From the NCBI GenBank assembly GCA_003250395.1, contig QKGM01000012.1:62001-126000 (forward strand): 64,000 bases of DNA, in the 5' to 3' direction. Numbering within the stretch: the stretch's first letter is position 1; the number at the start of each line of letters is the position of its first letter. The notes under the pieces were generated by a model. It searched no databases. It worked only from the letters and a program-made list of their open reading frames with translations, and had not been told where the DNA came from. Below are positions 28,087 to 39,589 of this stretch, piece after piece. Position numbers and translations under genes: made by a program. The stretch is from Bacteroidota bacterium. GTDB taxonomy: Bacteria > Bacteroidota > Bacteroidia > Bacteroidales > TTA-H9.

Positions 28087-28446
28087 ATGAAGACTAAAAA
28101 GGAGTTGAAGGCCATCTATAAAGAGATGAAGTTCAGGATTGGGGTATTCCAGATCAGGAATAAAGTCAACGGTAAAATATACGTGGAAGGGAGCCTTGAT
28201 CTGGTTTCGATATGGAACAGGCATAAATTCCAGTTAAAGATGGGTGTTCATCCTGTCGAAGCGCTTCAACACGACTGGAATGTACTGGGCGAAGAGAATT
28301 TCGCTTACGAAATCCTCAGCGAGATCAAACAGGATGATACCGGAAATGTAGATTATCAAAAGGAGGTCAGGCTGCTCGAACAGATGTATATCGACGAGTT
28401 GCAGCCGTTTGATGAAAAGGGCTACAACAGGAGAGGCCGCAGGTAA
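28087..28446 (+). CDS. GIY-YIG nuclease superfamily protein, motif-degenerate
   Basis: GVFQIRNKVNGKIYVEGSLDLVSIWNRHKFQL aligns with GIY-YIG N-terminal motifs but has GVF/YVE in place of GIY/YIG. Confidence 0.75.
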   Translation: MKTKKELKAIYKEMKFRIGVFQIRNKVNGKIYVEGSLDLVSIWNRHKFQLKMGVHPVEALQHDWNVLGEENFAYEILSEIKQDDTGNVDYQKEVRLLEQMYIDELQPFDEKGYNRRGRR

Positions 28447-28459
28447 TCAGGCGCGCCTA

Positions 28460-28670
28460 CAACCTAAGGCAATGCCCTGTATCAACAGGCATGGAAAACA
28501 CCAGAACCGGTGTTACGTATCCCTGGGTTGCCCCGCTGCAGGAGTAGCCCGATCAGGCTCATGCCGGTGTAATGAAATAATGGTGAAATCTACGGGAAGA
28601 GGACAACGGTCAACAGTGGTCTGGCCAGGAGCCTGAAAAGGGAGAAAGTAAGCCATAGCTAAAACTGTGC
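28460..28670 (+). ncRNA. Candidate structured RNA or relic (identity unknown)
   Basis: Nested helices: outer GGCAA (28468-28472)/TTGCC (28528-28532) enclosing TGCCcTGT/ACAGGCA (28473-28491) and AACACC/GGTGTT (28497-28514); more short stems downstream (AGCC/GGCT; CTGGCCAG). Confidence 0.35.
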
Positions 28671-29061
28671 CATAAATATTTTATATTCATTTTTCCTACA
28701 TATATATTATGTGCCATATATATAATAAACATAGGCTTTTCATAAGAAAAACCCGAATTTGCCCCGAATTTGGTATGAATTTGGGGTGAATCAGTAAGGA
28801 AATGGCGCTATAAATTACATGTAATCAGCAGGTTAAAAATGGTTGTTATGTGACAAATTTCACAGAAAAAATATTGAAAAAAGTTGAAAACAGCCAGGTC
28901 GGGAGGATGATTTTAGTGTAAATGCGTACGCATATTTTGGAAAACGGTTCTATTATTTGGAAAGATTGGAATTGGGGGCATTTTTAAAAAAAGTTGATTG
29001 GCCCCAATTCTGCACAGGCTGGTAAAGAGTTAATTCCAAACAATTTCTGACTACAGCATAA

Positions 29062-29657: not shown

Positions 29658-29680
29658 TATATTTGGACAAATTGTTCAAA
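29658..29680 (+). promoter_or_regulatory. Promoter -7 box overlapped by a palindromic operator for the XRE/defense operon
   Basis: TATATTTG (29658-29665) overlapping TTTGGACAA-A-TTGTTCAAA (29662-29680; 9-bp arms, one mismatch), 15 bp before the XRE ATG. Confidence 0.55.
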
Positions 29681-29694
29681 ACTGATTATTCAAA

Positions 29695-29973
29695 ATGAAT
29701 ACATTTGGAGAATATATACGAGAGCTTAGAGAAGCAAAAGGATTGCCTTTAAGAAAAGTTTCAGCAGAATTGGATGTTGATACTTCTATCCTTAGTAAAA
29801 TTGAAAGGAATGAGAGGAATGCAACAGTTGAAATGATACCTGTTTTGGCTGACGTACTTGATACGCCTGAAAAAGAATTCCAAATAAGATTCTTAAAGTT
29901 TTGCATTATCAGAGATTACGGCAATTTGACTCATTTAAAAGATGGGTTACAAGAGATCATTAAAGAATTATGA
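29695..29973 (+). CDS. XRE-family HTH transcriptional regulator (controller-protein-like)
   Basis: 92 aa; FGEYIRELREAKGLPLRKVSAELDVDTSILSKIERNERNATVEMI is a classic HTH_3. Stop overlaps the next start (ATGA). Confidence 0.92.
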   Translation: MNTFGEYIRELREAKGLPLRKVSAELDVDTSILSKIERNERNATVEMIPVLADVLDTPEKEFQIRFLKFCIIRDYGNLTHLKDGLQEIIKEL

Positions 29974-32900
29974 GTACTAAGTTTTTTACAAATACAGACG
30001 ACAACACTGTTTTTCAAAAATTCAAAGGGATTTTTGAGAACATGAAAGACATTTATGCTTTTCATGCAGTTGTCGGATATTTTCGTTCATCAGGTTATTT
30101 TGCGCTACAGGATTATCTAAAAGAAATTAAGGATATAAAAATTTTGGTCGGCATTAATGTCGATGAAATGTTTGCTGAAGCCCAACGAAAAGGATTGCTT
30201 TATTTTGGCGATGAAGAAAAAACCAAAGATGAGTTTCTGAGGTGGTTTGTACAAGATTTAAAAGAAGCCAAATATTCAGCAAAAGTTGAAGAAGGAATTT
30301 TTGATTTCATACAAGATTTAATTGATAGCAGAATTGAAGTTCGGGCTCATAACTCAAAAGCTATTCATGCTAAATTTTATTTATTTCTTCCCGAAAATCA
30401 TTCAGAACATTCAGACGGTTGGGTAATTATGGGGTCTTCAAATCTGACAGAAGCAGGTTTGGGAATTAAAAAATCACCAAACTATGAACTAAATATTGCG
30501 CTTAAAGACTACGATGATGTTGAATTCACAAAGACTGAATTTATAAAGCTGTGGGAGAAGTCAACTCCAATTTTACCAGCAGACATACAAGAATACAAAA
30601 AGAAAACTCATATTGGACAGACTTTTACGCCATTTGAAATATATCTGAAACTACTGATTGAATATTTTGGGAAAAATATTGATTACGACCCTGATACCGT
30701 TGGAGACTTACCAAAATCATTCAAAAAACTTAGTTATCAGATTGATGCTGTAAACCAGGGATTTCAGATGCTAATGGAGCATAATGGATTCTTCCTTTCC
30801 GATGTAGTAGGTTTAGGTAAAACTGTTGTTGGTTCTATGATTGCCAAAAGGTTTATTGTGGCAAATGGTTCTTTAAACACGAAAATATTAATTGTTTATC
30901 CACCTGCCCTAGAACGAAACTGGAAAAGTACATTTAGAACATTTGGAATTGATAAACATACAAAGTTTATAACTAATGGTCGTCTTGAAAGAATTCTGAA
31001 AGAAGAGGATTTGAATTATTGGGCTAAGGAAGATTACGATTTAGTAATTGTTGATGAAGCTCATAAATACAGAAACCATACTTCGCAAAGTTTTGAAAAT
31101 TTGCAGAGAATCTGCAAAGCACCTCGAAATGGTGAAGGTTTGGTTCCAGGTGCGAACAAGAAAATCATTCTCATTTCCGCAACTCCATTAAATAACAGAC
31201 CTCAAGATTTATATTACCAGTTGTTGTTATTTCAGGATGCTCGAAGAAGCACGCTTCCTGTAACGAATCTGCAATCTTTCTTTGGGCCAATCATTCGTGA
31301 GTATCGTGAAATAATGAAAGAGGATGAACCTCAGATTGAAAGAATCAGAGAATTGTATGACACAATCCGAGAGAAAGTTATTTCCCAAATTACAGTTCGT
31401 AGAACAAGGCGAGATTTAAAAGGCTATCCCCAATACATTGATGATTTAAAAGACCAAGGAATTGTATTTCCTGAAATTGCACCGTTAAAAGCTGTTCAAT
31501 ACGATTTGGATTCCAAGCTGAGCAAGCTATTCTATAAAACAATATTTTACCTTACAGACACAGACAAAGTCAACTATTTCAGATATCAGGCAATTGCTTA
31601 TTTGAACGAAGATTTACGAGACACCTATTACGACCAAGCGGTTTTGGTTTCTAAATCTTTGGCAGGAATCATGAAAACCTTAATGGTTAAACGACTTGAA
31701 AGTAGTTTCCATTCTTTCAAAATCACTTTAAACAATTTGCTGATTTCAACAGAAAGAATGATTCAAATGTTTGCGGATGATAAAGTTCTAATTGCCCCTG
31801 ACTTGAATATTAATAAACTGATTGAAAAAGGGTTCTCGATGGAAGAAATTGAGGACTTAATAATGGAATTGAATACTGAAAACCCAAAGAATAATATTTT
31901 CACTGCAAAAGATTTCGAAGAGGAATTTTTAAAAGGATTGACACACGACCGAGACTTGTTAAAAGAATTATTCGAAGAATGGCAAAAAGTTCAGTCCGAC
32001 CCTAAGTTGGACAAATTGTTTGACGCTTTAGAAAATGAATTATTCGACAAAGCAAAAAACCCCACAGGACAGTTAATAATTTTTACGGAAAGCAACGATA
32101 CTGCTGAATATTTAGCTGAAAAGCTTGATAACTATAAAAATAAAGGCGTTTTAAAAATTTCATCGGAAAACAGGAAAAAGATATTTGAAGTTATTCAGCA
32201 AAACTTTGATGCAAATTACGATGGAAAACGCAAGGATGATTATCATATCCTAATTACAACCGATGTTTTAGCCGAAGGTGTCAACTTGCACAGGGCAAAT
32301 GTTTTGGTGAATTACGATACTCCTTGGAATGCAACCAGATTAATGCAGAGAACTGGTCGTATTAATCGAATAGGTAGTATAGCTGGCGTAATTTACAATT
32401 ACAACTTTTACCCTTCGCAACACGGTGATGAGGAAATTCATTTATATAAAAATGCTTTAATAAAACTGCAAGGTTTTCATACCGCATTTGGTGAAGATGC
32501 TCAGGTATTTACACATGAAGAACTTGTTGAGCAGTTTGAACTTTTTAAAGAAGGTATGCCTGATGATGAAGACAAACGTCTTCAATATTTGAGGTTTATC
32601 AGAGAATTTAAAGACCTAAATCCTAGAGAATTTAAACGGATTAAAAATTTCCCATTGAAAGCACGAACTGCAAGAAAAAATAGTTTGCTTGAAAATGAAA
32701 ATATCAAAGATTCAACTTTGGTATTCCTTAAATCGCCATACAAAATGGAGTTTTACCATATTGGAAAAGACAAGAAAGTTTCATCACTTACTTTTTTAGA
32801 AGCTGCTGAAATATTTATAGCTGAACCTAAAGAATTGGGGCATGAAATTCCGTCTGTTCACTATGAACATGTACAAAAAGCTTTAGATGAGTTCGATAAT

Positions 32901-33269
32901 GACTTTTTAGGCTCATCGACAGAGGTTGTAACAACAACCGATAAAGCTGATGCAATTTCGGCACAGGCAAAAAAATTCCTTAGGGATTTTAAAGGAATTA
33001 CAAGAAATAATGAGGTTAAAAAAGCATGTGAGGCAATGATGGATTTGATTGATAAAGGTACTTACACACCACTACCAAACGAAATTCGCAAACTGAAAAA
33101 GCAACTCGATAAAAAAACAGTCACTTACGGACAAGCAGATAACTTAATTGTTGGAATTGCGAAAAAATTTGACGCAATAGATGACGAGCAAGAGTCAACA
33201 ACTTACAGAACGGAAATTGGAGCAAATATAACCCCAGAGATAGTTATTACTGAAACATTTACATCATAA
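29970..33269 (+). CDS. PLD-nuclease-fused SNF2/SF2 helicase (Hma-type helicase subunit)
   Basis: N-terminal PLD-like HAKFYLF...GSSNLTEAGL; DVVGLGKTVVGSMIA, VIVDEAHKYRNH, ISATPLNNRPQDLYY, TDVLAEGVNLHRANVLVNYDTPWNATRLMQRTGRINRIG. Confidence 0.95.
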   Translation: MSTKFFTNTDDNTVFQKFKGIFENMKDIYAFHAVVGYFRSSGYFALQDYLKEIKDIKILVGINVDEMFAEAQRKGLLYFGDEEKTKDEFLRWFVQDLKEAKYSAKVEEGIFDFIQDLIDSRIEVRAHNSKAIHAKFYLFLPENHSEHSDGWVIMGSSNLTEAGLGIKKSPNYELNIALKDYDDVEFTKTEFIKLWEKSTPILPADIQEYKKKTHIGQTFTPFEIYLKLLIEYFGKNIDYDPDTVGDLPKSFKKLSYQIDAVNQGFQMLMEHNGFFLSDVVGLGKTVVGSMIAKRFIVANGSLNTKILIVYPPALERNWKSTFRTFGIDKHTKFITNGRLERILKEEDLNYWAKEDYDLVIVDEAHKYRNHTSQSFENLQRICKAPRNGEGLVPGANKKIILISATPLNNRPQDLYYQLLLFQDARRSTLPVTNLQSFFGPIIREYREIMKEDEPQIERIRELYDTIREKVISQITVRRTRRDLKGYPQYIDDLKDQGIVFPEIAPLKAVQYDLDSKLSKLFYKTIFYLTDTDKVNYFRYQAIAYLNEDLRDTYYDQAVLVSKSLAGIMKTLMVKRLESSFHSFKITLNNLLISTERMIQMFADDKVLIAPDLNINKLIEKGFSMEEIEDLIMELNTENPKNNIFTAKDFEEEFLKGLTHDRDLLKELFEEWQKVQSDPKLDKLFDALENELFDKAKNPTGQLIIFTESNDTAEYLAEKLDNYKNKGVLKISSENRKKIFEVIQQNFDANYDGKRKDDYHILITTDVLAEGVNLHRANVLVNYDTPWNATRLMQRTGRINRIGSIAGVIYNYNFYPSQHGDEEIHLYKNALIKLQGFHTAFGEDAQVFTHEELVEQFELFKEGMPDDEDKRLQYLRFIREFKDLNPREFKRIKNFPLKARTARKNSLLENENIKDSTLVFLKSPYKMEFYHIGKDKKVSSLTFLEAAEIFIAEPKELGHEIPSVHYEHVQKALDEFDNDFLGSSTEVVTTTDKADAISAQAKKFLRDFKGITRNNEVKKACEAMMDLIDKGTYTPLPNEIRKLKKQLDKKTVTYGQADNLIVGIAKKFDAIDDEQESTTYRTEIGANITPEIVITETFTS

Positions 33270-36200
33270 TGGAAAAGACAAAACTCAATAAAATATTTTT
33301 AAAAGCTTTTGATTTAAAAGAGTGGCTTGTTGTTTTAAAGGATGTTTTTGGGGCAAAACAATTGCTAACCCAGCCAAAACATATTTTACTGAACAACAAC
33401 GATAGGGCAAAATCAGCAACCGAGATTGGTAGTTTCGCCACTTCAGACGACCGTATTATTGGTTTGTATCACGTAGTAGTAAATGATGATGTTTGGTTGG
33501 AAAGAAACAAAGTTGGGTTACGTGAACTTTTACGAAATATTTATCGCTACGATGTTGATGGTGCTCTTGTTGTTTTTGAACAAGGCGATAAATGGCGTTT
33601 GTCATTCATATCTGAGATTAAGGTGTTAAATGATGAAGGCGAAGTTGTAGAACAAGCCACAGAACCCAAACGCTATACTTATTTGTTGGGGGTTGATGAA
33701 AAAGTTAAAACACCATCGGAACGCTTATCGAAACTTGCTGGTAAAACTTTAGCACTTAACGACATCTTAAATGCCTTTAGTGTTGAAGCATTAAACGAAG
33801 AATTTTACAAAATCATTTCGGAATATTTTTATCAATTGGTCGGTGGTACTGTTGGTTCAGGTAAATCTGCCAAATCATACGAACCAAAACTGAAATTGCC
33901 TATACCTATTGAAAACCATCAAACATATCAGGAATTTGTTGTTCGTTTAATTGGTCGGACTATTTTCTGTTGGTTTTTGAAAATGAAAAAATCTGATGAT
34001 GGGATTTCGCTTGTACCTGAAGGTTTATTGTCTTCCGAAGCTGTAAAGAATAATAAGGGATACTATCATACTGTTTTGGAACGCCTGTTTTTTCAAACAT
34101 TAAATACCAAAATGAATGAGAGAGTGGATGGACTGCCCGTTGGTTGTGAAAAAATTCCTTTTTTGAATGGTGGTTTGTTTGAACCTAATTCGGATGATTA
34201 TTACAAACCAAACCGTATAACAGGAATATCTGAAAACCTGAATACTCTCAAAATTGAAGATAACTGGTTTTTCGAACTTTTCACTGAACTGGAAAAATAC
34301 AACTTCACCATTGATGAAAACTCAGTAACCGATGTTGAAGTAAGTGTTGACCCTGAAATGCTTGGGCGTATTTTTGAAAATCTTTTGGCTGAAATTGACC
34401 CCGATAGTGGTGAAACAGCCCGTAAAGCAACAGGTAGTTTTTATACGCCCCGCGAAATTGTTGATTATATGGCAACGGAAAGCCTTGTGCAGTACATTCA
34501 TAATAAAACCTCAATTTCTCCTGATAAGATTCGCCCTGTGTTTAAGATGACAGAGGAACCAGACCCAACTTTCACAAAAACTGAATTGGAGGGTATTTTG
34601 GATGCACTTGACAAAGCAAAAATACTTGACCCTGCTTGTGGTTCGGGGGCTTTCCCAATGGGTGTTTTGCAAAAGATTGTTCAAGCATTACAGAAATTGG
34701 ATGCCAATGCCGATTGGTGGAAGAAACGACAAGTTGAACGTATTTCAAATCCGATTGTACGCAAGGCGTTAAAAGAAAAACTGGACTCATCGGGTGTAGA
34801 GTACGCTCGTAAAATTGGTGTTATACAAAACTCATTATATGGTGTGGATATTCAGCCTATTGCAGCTGAAATATCTAAACTTCGTTGTTTCTTGACTTTA
34901 ATTGTGGACGAAAACATTGACGAAACCAAACCCAACAGAGGCATTGAACCATTACCCAACCTTGAGTTTAAATTTGTAACTGCCGATACATTGCAAAAAC
35001 TACCAGAGGAAAAGAACCTTGGTGGTTTATTTAACAGCAATGACGATTTAGCTCAACTGGCTTCAATCAGACAAGATTATCTACAAAGCTACGGCGAACA
35101 AAAAACTGAACTTAAGACACAATTTAAAGCTACACAAGATAAAATTGCAAAACAGCAACTGGGTTTTGGTACAGCTTTAGACGTAAATAGCCGTGCTTGG
35201 TTGATTAGTACTTGGAATCCTTTTTCGCATGATAAAGCCGATTGGTTTGAGCCTCAATGGATGTTTGGAATTGAGAACTTTGATGTTGTAATTGGAAATC
35301 CCCCATATGGAACATCAGTAAAAGATGAATACAGAATTAAAGTCACCAATGCTTTGGGTAAAGTGCCTGATTTTGAGATATATTATTATTTTATAAATAA
35401 AGCATATCAGTTACTATCTAAAAAAGGTATTATTTCATACATAATTCCTAATACGTTTTTATTTAACACATATGCAAAACATTATAGAATTAAATTGCTA
35501 GAAAATTGGAATTTATTAGAAGTGCTCGATTGTACAAATTTCCCAATTTTCAATAATGCAGTAGTAAGAAACACAATAAATACATGGCAGAAAGGGAATT
35601 CAGAAATTATTGGATATCGAAATACAAAAAGAAAGAATTGTTTCAAGGAGTTAATACAAGCTAAAAAAGAAATTATTTCAATAAAAGATATTAAGAAATT
35701 TAATGAAAACTGGGGCTTAGCATTTTCACTTGAAAAATCAAAATTTACTGCAATTAATAAAATTAGGAACTCATCTGTTATACTAGAGAAATATTTTCCA
35801 GAAATATCACAAGGTTTAATAGCTTACGATAAATACAGAGGGCAATCAGCAGATATTATAAAATCAAGAGCATATCATTATACAGAGAAAATTAAAGATG
35901 ATTTAAAACCGTGGTTAAAGGGTGGTGATGTATCTCGCTACATGGTAAAATGGAATGAGCTTCATTATATTGATTACTGTGATGATATTGCAAATCCAAG
36001 AAATCCAAAATATTTTGTAGGTGAAAGAATTTTAGTTAGAGAAATTACAAACCCATCTATTTATGCAGGGTACACAGAAGAGGAGCTTTATAATGACCCA
36101 GGTATTATAATTATTAAAGGGAATGATACATATTCAATTAAATCAGTTTTAGCGATTTTAAATTCTAAATTGGCTAGCTTCTTCCACTTTAATTCTTCTC

Positions 36201-36634
36201 CCAAAGCAACTAAAGGTGCATTTCCGAAAATTTTAGTTCAAGATGTAAAAAACTTTCCATTAGCACCAAAATTCAATCAAAGCTCATTGGAAATATTAGT
36301 TGACTTCATATTGTTTTTGAAATCTACATCAAATAACCAAATAAATCCACTTGTTTCTAACTTTTATTTTATTGAACTTTTAGATAATGTGATAGATGCA
36401 ATGGTAATGGAGCTATATTTTGAAGAAGATTTTAAAAAGACCGGAATTGAATTTATAAAATATGCAGAACGTGATTTTGAGAGCATTGAGGGAAAACCAG
36501 AGCCTGAAAAAATTGAAATAATAAATAAGGCCTACCAAAAGTTAAATGAGAAAGATAACGAGATACGGAATAACCTTAAGCTTATGGATATAAAACTGGC
36601 TGATATTGTATTACCTATAAAATCGGCTAAGTAA
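33269..36634 (+). CDS. Eco57I/N6-adenine-type DNA methyltransferase (Hma-type methylase subunit)
   Basis: TGSFYTPREIVDYMATESL, motif I ILDPACGSGAFPMGVLQ, motif IV FDVVIGNPPYG; 1121 aa; start overlaps the upstream stop (TAATG). Confidence 0.95.
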   Translation: MEKTKLNKIFLKAFDLKEWLVVLKDVFGAKQLLTQPKHILLNNNDRAKSATEIGSFATSDDRIIGLYHVVVNDDVWLERNKVGLRELLRNIYRYDVDGALVVFEQGDKWRLSFISEIKVLNDEGEVVEQATEPKRYTYLLGVDEKVKTPSERLSKLAGKTLALNDILNAFSVEALNEEFYKIISEYFYQLVGGTVGSGKSAKSYEPKLKLPIPIENHQTYQEFVVRLIGRTIFCWFLKMKKSDDGISLVPEGLLSSEAVKNNKGYYHTVLERLFFQTLNTKMNERVDGLPVGCEKIPFLNGGLFEPNSDDYYKPNRITGISENLNTLKIEDNWFFELFTELEKYNFTIDENSVTDVEVSVDPEMLGRIFENLLAEIDPDSGETARKATGSFYTPREIVDYMATESLVQYIHNKTSISPDKIRPVFKMTEEPDPTFTKTELEGILDALDKAKILDPACGSGAFPMGVLQKIVQALQKLDANADWWKKRQVERISNPIVRKALKEKLDSSGVEYARKIGVIQNSLYGVDIQPIAAEISKLRCFLTLIVDENIDETKPNRGIEPLPNLEFKFVTADTLQKLPEEKNLGGLFNSNDDLAQLASIRQDYLQSYGEQKTELKTQFKATQDKIAKQQLGFGTALDVNSRAWLISTWNPFSHDKADWFEPQWMFGIENFDVVIGNPPYGTSVKDEYRIKVTNALGKVPDFEIYYYFINKAYQLLSKKGIISYIIPNTFLFNTYAKHYRIKLLENWNLLEVLDCTNFPIFNNAVVRNTINTWQKGNSEIIGYRNTKRKNCFKELIQAKKEIISIKDIKKFNENWGLAFSLEKSKFTAINKIRNSSVILEKYFPEISQGLIAYDKYRGQSADIIKSRAYHYTEKIKDDLKPWLKGGDVSRYMVKWNELHYIDYCDDIANPRNPKYFVGERILVREITNPSIYAGYTEEELYNDPGIIIIKGNDTYSIKSVLAILNSKLASFFHFNSSPKATKGAFPKILVQDVKNFPLAPKFNQSSLEILVDFILFLKSTSNNQINPLVSNFYFIELLDNVIDAMVMELYFEEDFKKTGIEFIKYAERDFESIEGKPEPEKIEIINKAYQKLNEKDNEIRNNLKLMDIKLADIVLPIKSAK

Positions 36635-38613
36635 TGCACAAGATAAAGCAAATCACTCTTCAAAATTTCAAGTTCTTTTATGGGAATGTTCCCATAAATT
36701 TCGACCGTAAGCATGTGCTTATTTATGGTGAAAATGGTAGCGGTAAAAGTTCAATACATTGGGCTATATATACTTTTTTGCAAAGTGTATTTAAACAAGA
36801 TGTAAAACAGGTTCAAAAATATTTTCAGCCAATAACAAGGCATGAAGAAAGTATAAAAAACCGTTATGCATCAGACACAGAAGATGCTTTTATTGAAATT
36901 ACTTTTGTGGATGAGAGCGAAGATATCAGAACTAAAAAGATTTCAAATACAACCGTCAACACTCGTCCTCAAACTGACCGATTTGTTGAGCAGATAACTC
37001 TTTCAAGCGATTTAATTGATTACAAATCAATATTTAATATCTACAACTATACCAATAAAGACAGGGTTAAACTTTTCGGTTACATTGAAAAAAATCTGAT
37101 GCCTTTCATAAAATTGCAGAATCCAATTTCAGACAATGCAGGAAATCCAATTTCGCAAAACCTAGAAGTTTGTTGGAATTATTTGAAAAAAGGCCTTGCC
37201 CCTTATCCTGGCATCTATGACCAAACCTACCATAATTTTCAAGCATCAATTGCTCAATTTAATACCGATTTTAAATTCTATTTGGAATCAATTGCTGTTC
37301 GTGCAAATGAATATCTGAAAGAGAAATTCAAAGAAAAATTTGAAATATCATTCGAATATCAGGATTGCACATACAACGATTTCAATAGTTACAATAAAGG
37401 TCGAAACAAAAGAACTATTGCACCTGAAATATATTTAACAGCAAGGCTATTTGACACAAATCTAACTGATGACACAAATAAAGTTCAACGTGTTCATTCT
37501 TTCTTAAATGAAGCCAGACTTTCTTCGATTGCTTTAGCCATTCGGATGGCAATTTTGAAAGAGAAATATGTAAAGTCGTCTCCAAAAATACTTGTTTTGG
37601 ACGATTTGCTATTAAGCCTTGATATGGGCAATAGAGAGGCTGTTTTAAACATCGTTTTAGATGAATATTTAGAAGATTATCAGTTAATTGTTTTGACTCA
37701 TGACCGTAGCTTTTTCCAAACAGTATTGAGTTATATAAAAACAGATTATGCTAAAAAACTAAAAAGCACAGGAGAAACGAACACCGATAAGTTATCAAAT
37801 GCTTTTAAAGAACACTGGAAAGTTCTTGAAATGTATGAATCCACTTTACCTGACGGTAAAAACATTCCTGCAATTGTAGAACATCAATCACATATTCAAA
37901 AAGCACTACATTATTTTACTGACAAAGATTGCATTGACTATAATGCTTGTGGTAATAATTTACGAGCAGCCTTGGAGGAGTTTTTCAGGGAATTCATACC
38001 CAAAGAATTTCTGAGGGATAATAGTGGTAATCTAATAGAAAAGAATTCGTTAATGCTAAATCCTTTGACTGAAAAATGTATGGATTATTTTAATCATATT
38101 GGATTTAATACTCAGTATCTTGATAAAATAAACAGATACAGGGAACGTACATTAAATCAAACTTCGCATTACAATCCACTGTCAAATTACTTTAAAAAAG
38201 AACTTCAAGAAACATTCGAAATACTAAACGAATTAAAAAAGTATCGGACAGATTCTGTAGTAAAAACAGATGAATTATTACAATTCTCAGTTGAAAGTCC
38301 GAGTGGTAAACAGTTCTTGTACACTTTTAAACCTCTTGATGATATTAGACTTTATAAAGAACCTTTAAATGGTAGTACATCATTCTATTGTAATAAGGAC
38401 AAAAGAATCTATGCATTGGTAGGATTTACAGAAAACGATAATTCACAATTGATAAGTTACTCAACAAAATCAATGACTTTAAGTGATTTCTATAATGAAA
38501 CAATTGATGGTTTAGAAAAGAAAATTAAAGAAACATGCACTAAAGCACCAGATATTTATGATGTTATAAAAACAGTGGACGGGAAAACCTTGAATGAATT
38601 AAAAACTTATTAG
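36634..38613 (+). CDS. AAA/SMC-like (ABC-type) ATPase (Hma-type ATPase subunit)
   Basis: Walker A IYGENGSGKSSIHWAIY, signature-like ARLSSIALAIRMAIL, Walker B ILVLDDLLLSLDMGNR, H-loop LTHDRSFF; start overlaps the upstream stop (TAATG). Confidence 0.93.
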   Translation: MHKIKQITLQNFKFFYGNVPINFDRKHVLIYGENGSGKSSIHWAIYTFLQSVFKQDVKQVQKYFQPITRHEESIKNRYASDTEDAFIEITFVDESEDIRTKKISNTTVNTRPQTDRFVEQITLSSDLIDYKSIFNIYNYTNKDRVKLFGYIEKNLMPFIKLQNPISDNAGNPISQNLEVCWNYLKKGLAPYPGIYDQTYHNFQASIAQFNTDFKFYLESIAVRANEYLKEKFKEKFEISFEYQDCTYNDFNSYNKGRNKRTIAPEIYLTARLFDTNLTDDTNKVQRVHSFLNEARLSSIALAIRMAILKEKYVKSSPKILVLDDLLLSLDMGNREAVLNIVLDEYLEDYQLIVLTHDRSFFQTVLSYIKTDYAKKLKSTGETNTDKLSNAFKEHWKVLEMYESTLPDGKNIPAIVEHQSHIQKALHYFTDKDCIDYNACGNNLRAALEEFFREFIPKEFLRDNSGNLIEKNSLMLNPLTEKCMDYFNHIGFNTQYLDKINRYRERTLNQTSHYNPLSNYFKKELQETFEILNELKKYRTDSVVKTDELLQFSVESPSGKQFLYTFKPLDDIRLYKEPLNGSTSFYCNKDKRIYALVGFTENDNSQLISYSTKSMTLSDFYNETIDGLEKKIKETCTKAPDIYDVIKTVDGKTLNELKTY

Positions 38614-38953: not shown

Positions 38954-39589
38954 ATGACAGAATTTTGGGAGACAAGTTTTAGAGATAAACAAGAAATGTG
39001 GGGATGGGAACCTGCTGACTCTGCTATTGAAACGCTAGAATTATTTAATAAATACGAATTAAATAAAATCCTGATTCCTGGATTCGGTTATGGTAGAAAT
39101 GCCAGGATTTTTACTGACAATGGATTTAAGGTAACTGGTATTGAGATTTCTGAAACGGCAATTGACATAGCACAAAAACACTTTGGAGATAGGATAAAAG
39201 TATACCACGGTTCAGTTGGTTCAATGCCATTTGATCAGGAATTATATGATGGTATTTTCAGTTATGCTTTAATCCATTTATTAAGCGCACCAGAACGGGC
39301 AAAACTAATTGAAGATTGTTATAATCAGCTTAAACCTAATGGATACATGGTTTTTGTATCCATTTCAAAAAAGGATTTTAGATATGGACAAGGAAAAGAA
39401 GTAATCAAAGACACATTTGAAACTTGGCCGGGCGTTACTTTATTCTTTTATGACTTAGACTCAATTAAAGCAGATTTTGGCAATTATGGTTTGATAGATG
39501 CCGAAGTAATTAATGAACCAAAAATTGTTATAAGAGATAAACCCTCACAACGATTTTGGTATATAATATGCAAGAAACAAATTAATTAA
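38954..39589 (+). CDS. Class I SAM-dependent methyltransferase
   Basis: KILIPGFGYGRNARIFTDNGFKVTGIEISETAIDIA (motif I) and FDQELYDGIFSYALIHLL. Confidence 0.88.
   Translation: MTEFWETSFRDKQEMWGWEPADSAIETLELFNKYELNKILIPGFGYGRNARIFTDNGFKVTGIEISETAIDIAQKHFGDRIKVYHGSVGSMPFDQELYDGIFSYALIHLLSAPERAKLIEDCYNQLKPNGYMVFVSISKKDFRYGQGKEVIKDTFETWPGVTLFFYDLDSIKADFGNYGLIDAEVINEPKIVIRDKPSQRFWYIICKKQIN

What the first reader, a model, noticed from the sequence alone, without database searches (positions are those of the whole stretch)
29658..38613. Four-gene overlapping defense operon: XRE controller + PLD-helicase + Eco57I methylase + SMC-like ATPase (Hma-type)
Seen directly: four ORFs coupled by ATGA, TAATG and TAATG overlaps, encoding an HTH regulator, a PLD (HxK...GSSN) + SNF2-like helicase fusion, a 1121-aa methylase with DPACGSG and NPPY motifs, and an ATPase with Walker A/B and an H-loop. 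Established: a helicase-methylase-ATPase trio is catalogued as the Hma defense system (PADLOC nomenclature, from memory). Inference: this is an Hma-type system with an integrated C-protein-like regulator. The PLD domain would be the effector nuclease and the methylase would mark self DNA. The mechanism is largely uncharacterised, as far as I know.
Basis: partly seen in the sequence, partly recalled or inferred. Interest (0 to 1): 0.8.

Follow-up and report, generated by a model that had tools for sequence, protein, structure and literature searches.

The report
Restriction system with clip-on RNase guard
These four genes form an acquired bacterial anti-virus system that probably marks its own DNA and cuts foreign DNA, and the gene first read as a chromosome-type ATPase looks like a second-line RNA-cutting guard that clips onto the DNA-marking enzyme through a special tail.

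Summary
In detail: four ORFs overlap as described (ATGA, TAATG, TAATG) in a low-GC island that is absent from the one same-genus genome checked. The name Hma is not supported: the ATPase is not the DUF499 type that defines Hma. Homologues show a conserved two-gene core, a PLD–SNF2 helicase plus an Eco57I-type N6-adenine methyltransferase with a TaqI-like specificity domain and no conserved nuclease motif of its own. In about a third of related loci a third gene follows: an ABC ATPase fused to a C-terminal HEPN-like domain (profile score 36.8; best of 200 shuffles 17.5), with R, E/D and H in the order of the PrrC/RloC anticodon nucleases (24/24 proteins). The methyltransferase carries a ~70-residue C-terminal tail in all 24 compared loci with this ATPase and in none of 27 without any trace of it; three further loci keep the tail without an intact ATPase. 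ATPase presence changed at least nine times on the tree. ATPase divergence follows the tail, not the specificity domain. Best reading: an ATP-dependent restriction-modification system with an optional PrrC-like ribonuclease guard docked on the methyltransferase tail. Ribonuclease activity and docking are inferred, not shown. The XRE regulator is a rare extra.

The parts
29662..29680 (.). Palindrome TTTGGACAAATTGTTCAAA, 14 bases upstream of the XRE start codon; probable operator
   Evidence: sequence; an inverted repeat of similar form (about TTTKGAC-N5/6-GTCCAAA) lies at the same place upstream of the related XRE genes of L024, L037 and L123
29695..29973 (+). XRE/HTH_3 regulator, 92 aa, C-protein-like; optional component
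   Evidence: homologues at the same place in L024 (67%), L037 (59%), L042 (42%) and L123 (60%) only
29970..33269 (+). PLD (HKD) nuclease domain (aa 103-195) fused to a SNF2-type helicase (aa 254-802); predicted DNA-cutting translocase
   Evidence: invariant H133, K135, GSSN155-158, E173 and helicase motifs in 18 homologues
33269..36634 (+). Eco57I-type N6-adenine methyltransferase, 1121 aa; motifs DPACGSG (aa 454-460) and NPPY (aa 677-680); TaqI_C specificity domain (aa 881-998)
   Evidence: nearest solved structures are adenine-specific methyltransferase 7lni and BseCI
36419..36631 (+). C-terminal tail of the methyltransferase (aa 1051-1121), predicted docking element for the ATPase
   Evidence: 69-77 residues in 24/24 loci with the ATPase, 2-37 in 27/27 without it; its divergence tracks ATPase divergence
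36634..37749 (+). RecF/SMC-type ABC ATPase domain (aa 1-372) with a short insert, no long coiled coil
37816..38253 (+). HEPN-like domain (aa ~395-540) with R444-x3-E448 ... N508-x3-H512; predicted ribonuclease of PrrC/RloC type
   Evidence: motif form taken from PMC2610378

Best explanation
An ATP-dependent restriction-modification system with a built-in second line. The methyltransferase recognises a DNA site through its TaqI-like domain and methylates adenine to mark self DNA. The helicase partner is loaded at unmodified sites, translocates on ATP, and its PLD domain cuts the foreign DNA. The third protein is an ABC ATPase fused to a HEPN-fold ribonuclease domain. It is tethered to the complex, and probably held inactive, through the methyltransferase's C-terminal tail; when the restriction complex is disabled or altered during infection it is released and cuts RNA (by analogy with PrrC/RloC, tRNA anticodon loops) to stop phage growth. 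The XRE protein, where present, represses its own promoter to time expression. Shown computationally: the conserved core, the conserved active-site residues, the HEPN-fold match, the tail-ATPase linkage. Inferred: cutting, methylation, RNA target, inhibition by docking, trigger.
For: Core: 53 of 55 helicase-anchored stretches show at least part of a family methyltransferase downstream of the helicase, and the other two run off their contigs. No PD-(D/E)XK-like invariant residues in the methyltransferase N-terminus, so PLD is the only predicted DNA nuclease. HEPN: profile-profile match to PF05168 members over 115 columns, score 36.8, P 1.4e-5; reversed profiles, seven other regions and 200 column shuffles give at most 17.5; isolated C-terminal domains hit Pfam HEPN or DUF4145 below threshold in 4 of 8. 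R-x3-E/D-x56-120-(S/A)H in 24/24, the RloC/PrrC motif being R-x3-E-x36-52-H with Ser often before His. Docking: tail in 24/24 ATPase+ loci and 0/27 ATPase- loci, at least 9 changes of state; tail distance correlates with ATPase distance (0.51, Mantel p 0.0005), specificity domain only 0.12, core 0.14; window and L026 share the specificity domain (59%) but not tail (32%) or ATPase (24%), while window and L017 share the tail (79%) and not the specificity domain (20%). Linkage is one-sided as for PrrC: the ATPase nearly always has the methyltransferase beside it, the core often lacks the ATPase. A low-GC island absent from same-genus G480 fits a mobile defence locus.
Against: No experiment. The HEPN match is below Pfam cut-off for single sequences; my RloC set did not match the same HEPN profile and the direct comparison of this domain with RloC's was not significant, so kinship to PrrC/RloC rests on motif order and architecture. 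E-to-H spacing (56-120) exceeds RloC's 36-52, and the classical HEPN Rx4-6H arginine is replaced by Asn. Two loci (L142, L166) have the tail with no ATPase found. Rows on the tree are not independent, and a very diverged ATPase could be missed.
Confidence: 0.62

Rival explanations
1. The ATPase is a structural DNA-sensing or loading subunit of the restriction complex; its HEPN-like domain is non-catalytic and only binds the methyltransferase tail or nucleic acid.
For: RecF/SMC-type heads bind DNA; the top Foldseek hits are ABC heads; HEPN domains without activity are known (PMC3710099).
Against: R444 and H512 are invariant and E448/N508 nearly so in a protein otherwise only about 25-40% identical; most loci have the core without the ATPase.
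Confidence: 0.22
2. A BREX- or DISARM-like exclusion system in which methylation marks self and phage replication is blocked without PLD cutting.
For: Weak profile similarity to PglX, DrmMI and DrmD.
Against: The operon holds no PglZ, BrxC, DrmA or DrmB; scores far below curated cut-offs (DrmD 149 of 610 bits, PglX 58 of 500); PLD residues invariant.
Confidence: 0.07
3. An Hma (DUF499-centred BREX-related) system.
For: Helicase, methylase, ATPase order; HmaA hit 1e-31; Type-2 BR helicases also have an N-terminal HKD domain.
Against: No DUF499 hit to the ATPase; no DUF3780 hit among the operon's proteins; the ATPase is ABC-type.
Confidence: 0.02
4. A type IIG restriction enzyme next to unrelated helicase and repair ATPase genes.
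For: Best PADLOC hit of the methylase is REase_MTase_IIG, 5e-80.
Against: No conserved nuclease motif in the N-terminus; helicase adjacent throughout; tail-ATPase linkage.
Confidence: 0.05

Closest known systems
PrrC with the EcoprrI type Ic restriction-modification system, and RloC
   Same: ABC ATPase with a C-terminal HEPN RNase carrying R-x3-E...(S)H; PrrC is encoded with, and held in check by, a restriction-modification enzyme (PMC2610378, PMC3710099)
   Different: Core here is PLD-SNF2 helicase + Eco57I methyltransferase, not HsdRMS; below the AAA_13 family cut-off (25.2 of 36 bits); no RloC-like coiled-coil insert; wider E-to-H spacing; docking tail on the methyltransferase
CxC ABC-ATPase systems / PbeABCD
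   Same: HKD endoDNase fused to SF2 helicase, with an ABC ATPase and sometimes DNA methylases (PMC10853773)
   Different: There a long coiled-coil CxC ATPase with DndE and a small protein; none of these here, and the ATPase carries a HEPN-like domain
Hma / DUF499-centred BREX-related systems (type 2)
   Same: HKD + SWI2/SNF2 helicase, adenine methyltransferase, ATPase (PMC12839542)
   Different: DUF499 AAA+ ATPase and DUF3780 absent here
PLD-type ATP-dependent restriction systems such as NgoAVII/CglI and SauUSI (from memory)
   Same: PLD nuclease working with an SF2 helicase-like ATPase
   Different: Different recognition domains and methylase types; no HEPN guard
DISARM class 1 (DrmD + DrmMI)
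   Same: SNF2 helicase beside a large adenine methyltransferase
   Different: DrmA, DrmB and DrmC absent; scores far below cut-off

Membership tests
Hma (PADLOC) | DUF499-type ATPase (HmaC) | tested here: not met
   no DUF499 hit in Pfam scans of the ATPase up to E=1; definition
Hma (PADLOC) | SNF2-type helicase (HmaA) | tested here: inconclusive
   HmaA 1e-31 with best stretch 653-836; C3a139 and DrmD score better
PrrC/RloC anticodon nucleases | N-terminal ABC ATPase with a C-terminal HEPN domain | tested here: met
   (HEPN by profile comparison, below Pfam cut-off for single sequences)
PrrC/RloC anticodon nucleases | R-x3-E-x36-52-H triad, Ser often before His | tested here: inconclusive
   order met in 24/24 (E or D; S or A before H), spacing 56-120 is longer
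PrrC/RloC anticodon nucleases | Membership of AAA_13 (PF13166) at its cut-off | tested here: not met
   25.2 bits against 36
PrrC/RloC anticodon nucleases | tRNA anticodon cleavage | not testable with these tools
   needs biochemistry
PrrC | Linked to hsdMSR type Ic genes | tested here: not met
   neighbourhood holds helicase + Eco57I methyltransferase
PbeABCD / CxC ABC-ATPase | DndE partner and coiled-coil CxC ATPase | tested here: not met
   no such gene in the operon; short ABC insert
Type IIG restriction enzyme | Nuclease and methyltransferase in one chain | tested here: inconclusive
   no invariant PD-(D/E)XK-like residues in the N-terminus, but the methyltransferase structure model is poor (pLDDT 56)
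DISARM | DrmA, DrmB, DrmC present | tested here: not met
   the operon holds none of them; helicase and methylase scores are far below cut-offs
BREX | PglZ and BrxC present | tested here: not met
   the operon holds neither; PglX score 58 of 500 bits
Restriction-modification with C protein | Small HTH autoregulator with an operator upstream of its own gene | tested here: inconclusive
   HTH gene and a palindrome of shared form upstream in 4 loci; binding untested

The most novel reading that the evidence does not exclude
A plug-in guard: the methyltransferase tail plus ABC-HEPN ribonuclease form one exchangeable cassette that is gained and lost as a unit on a PLD-helicase restriction-modification core, giving it a PrrC-like suicide response whose inhibitor is a tail built into the DNA methyltransferase.
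Probability: 0.5. Interest if true: 0.75.

Novelty: new variant of a known kind. Interest (0 to 1): 0.62.

Why it matters
If right, guarding a restriction enzyme with a ribonuclease is not a peculiarity of type Ic systems and PrrC but recurs on a different restriction machine, spread over several phyla. The guard's attachment point is predicted to within about 70 residues, which makes the old question of how a restriction enzyme silences its partner RNase directly testable by deleting a tail. It also shows that catalogue searches file these ATPases under generic SMC-, PtuA- or mad3-like hits and miss their second domain.

Tried and rejected
Hma and DISARM assignment. RloC versus this domain by profile comparison: not significant. 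DUF4145 as the nearest HEPN-like family: only scattered weak hits, profile comparison negative. First HEPN profile comparison was spoiled because minus-strand loci had not been turned round; redone. Foldseek of the whole ATPase model returns ABC heads at the top. The methyltransferase model was too poor to use. First ATPase scan of genome contigs with a single sequence gave nothing. Two viral-contig scans gave no answer; no helicase relative in the phage collection at E 1e-40. Promoter and terminator scan gave no more than shuffles. No solved RloC-like structure found by sequence. Literature searches found no description of this trio; the 2020 survey of ABC ATPases in conflict systems, tried by its DOI, is not held, so an earlier mention there cannot be excluded.

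Full report
OBSERVATION. The four ORFs exist exactly as described: XRE 29695-29973, helicase 29970-33269, methyltransferase 33269-36634, ATPase 36634-38613, with overlaps of 4, 1 and 1 bases. Pfam gives HTH_3; PLDc_2 + SNF2 + Helicase_C; Eco57I + N6_Mtase + TaqI_C; SMC_N/AAA_23. The operon lies in a low-GC block, about 0.33 against 0.42-0.48 around it. A same-genus genome (G480) is collinear with the window up to about 28.45 kb, apart from a 115-base match at 28659-28773, and then departs. Two same-genus and six same-family genomes lack the helicase at E 1e-60. This fits an acquired, patchily distributed locus.

NOT Hma. PADLOC's Hma is helicase, methyltransferase and ATPase. A 2026 survey identifies HmaC as a DUF499 ATPase and files the system as BREX-related. 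Our ATPase has no DUF499 hit. The helicase scores best against PADLOC C3a139 'HKD+Snf2' (2e-43), ahead of DrmD and HmaA; the methyltransferase against REase_MTase_IIG (5e-80); the ATPase only weakly against mad3, PtuA and PbeC. All NCBIfam scores are far below their curated cut-offs.

A CONSERVED CASSETTE. Searching with the ATPase in 396 genomes of the phylum found 13 with relatives, the window's own genome included; a genome-contig scan with the ATPase alignment added 15 loci, one of them (L043) a weak match not treated as a relative, from Bacteroidota, Proteobacteria, Campylobacterota (Sulfurovum), Latescibacteria, Planctomycetes and Poribacteria. Helicase, methyltransferase and ATPase stand in this order in L017, L018, L020-L024, L026 and L029, L030, L032-L037, L041, L042, with split genes in L039 and L041. 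Exceptions are L038 (no methyltransferase nearby), L040 (two methyltransferases, no helicase found), L031 (short contig) and L028 (decayed ATPase). The XRE gene is present in the window, L024, L037, L042 and L123 only. Between helicase and methyltransferase some loci carry YhcG/DUF1016, KilA-N, RhuM or Schlafen/AlbA_2 genes; RhuM genes have been noted before beside PrrC-like genes in restriction loci.

THE CORE IS TWO GENES. Searching with the helicase instead and reading downstream shows at least part of a family methyltransferase in 53 of 55 stretches, the other two running off their contigs. The ATPase is present in a minority: 3 of 9 loci with enough sequence in the first set. The methyltransferase N-terminus has no invariant residues that would make a PD-(D/E)XK site, whereas the PLD H133, K135 and GSSN are invariant in 18 helicases. 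PLD is therefore the only predicted DNA-cutting site. The nearest solved relatives of the methyltransferase are an adenine-specific methyltransferase (7lni) and BseCI; the helicase is RapA/SNF2-like.

THE THIRD PROTEIN. Its N-terminal part is a RecF/SMC/Rad50-type ABC head with a short insert. The C-terminal part (aa ~395-540) was not annotated as a domain by the libraries for the window protein. Aligned relatives share R444-x3-E448 and N508-x2-S511-H512. Across 24 rows the pattern is R-x3-E/D-x56-120-(S/A)H without exception, N508 being His in one (the window protein heads both alignments, so 23 different proteins). PMC2610378 describes the RloC/PrrC triad as R-x3-E-x36-52-H with Ser often before His, all three residues needed for activity in RloC; PMC3710099 assigns those domains to the HEPN fold fused to ABC ATPases, PrrC being held inactive by its partner restriction enzyme. 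HEPN membership was tested: hmmscan of the isolated domains gives HEPN PF05168 (0.0013-0.059) or DUF4145 in 4 of 8. Profile-profile comparison with PF05168 members gives score 36.8, probability 80, P 1.4e-5 over 115 columns, with E448 falling on the HEPN E-x3-K acidic residue. Controls score at most 17.5. The comparison with bona fide RloC C-termini collected here was not significant, so the PrrC/RloC link is one of architecture and active-site order. The AlphaFold2 model of the ATPase (pLDDT 77.8) puts R444 and E448 on one helix and H512 in the loop before a later helix.

THE TAIL. In the first 26 methyltransferases with known status, the 20 beside an ATPase run 123-141 residues past window residue 990, and the 6 without end after 63-79, at the point where the others continue past a shared '...ID..VYELY' helix. 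I then fetched 38 further helicase-anchored loci as a fresh test. Four have the ATPase, all with tail (two with split ATPase genes, one with two genes in between). Twenty-one with enough downstream sequence lack both. Three have the tail without an intact ATPase: L150 keeps an 89%-identical remnant of the ATPase C-terminus, L166 and L142 have none found, and all three sit beside ATPase-bearing loci on the tree. In all: tail 69-77 residues past 1050 in 24/24, 2-37 in 27/27 (Fisher 4e-13 if rows were independent, fresh test alone 0.0009). They are not independent, but the tree needs at least nine changes of state on well-supported branches. ATPase distance correlates with tail distance (0.51, Mantel p 0.0005; 0.50 given the core) but hardly with the specificity domain (0.12) or core (0.14). 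Window and L026 share specificity (59%) but not tail (32%) or ATPase (24%); window and L017 or L029 share tail (79-80%) but not specificity (20-21%). I take the tail as the docking site of the ATPase. That it inhibits the ATPase is inference by analogy with PrrC.

MECHANISM. Shown: gene order, conserved catalytic residues, HEPN-like fold match, tail-ATPase linkage. Inferred: N6-adenine marking, loading of the helicase at unmodified sites, PLD cutting, ATPase docking and silencing, release on interference, RNA cleavage. The RNA target is unknown; tRNA is only the analogy.

NOVELTY. Restriction systems with an ABC-HEPN guard, and HKD-SF2 helicase systems with an ABC ATPase (PbeABCD), are both known kinds. 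I found no description of this combination or of the tail. The 2020 ABC survey could not be read. New variant of a known kind.

LIMITS. One marker (ATPase) may be missed where very diverged; genomes sampled are mostly one phylum; several contigs end inside the operon; the methyltransferase model was unusable.

Noticed in passing
G000 contig C48:11468-13600 (L045): The host genome also has a full-length AAA_13/RloC-type gene (E 8e-177), a separate predicted anticodon nuclease.
   Followed up: partly
L118:8434-9971: Beside a methyltransferase of this family lies an oppositely oriented fragment of the same family and a serine-recombinase-like gene, which looks like an invertible, phase-variable specificity cassette.
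   Followed up: no
L028 against L023: The same flanking genes (156-aa and 1018-aa proteins) enclose a full cassette in L023 and only a decayed ATPase in L028: loss by decay at one site.
   Followed up: partly
L040:3373-11440: Two methyltransferase genes and the ATPase, no helicase in the fetched stretch.
   Followed up: no
ATPase alignments A3/A4, window ATPase residue 356: A subset of the ATPases has Tyr in place of the H-loop His; these seem to go with a different tail type.
   Followed up: partly
window 28087-28446: 119-aa ORF with a sub-threshold match to a group I intron endonuclease model, next to the island's left edge.
   Followed up: no
window 38954-39589: Small class I SAM-dependent methyltransferase just downstream of the operon, in the same low-GC block.
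   Followed up: no
L123:12370-12648: The XRE regulator occurs also at a locus without the ATPase, so it belongs with the core rather than with the guard.
   Followed up: partly
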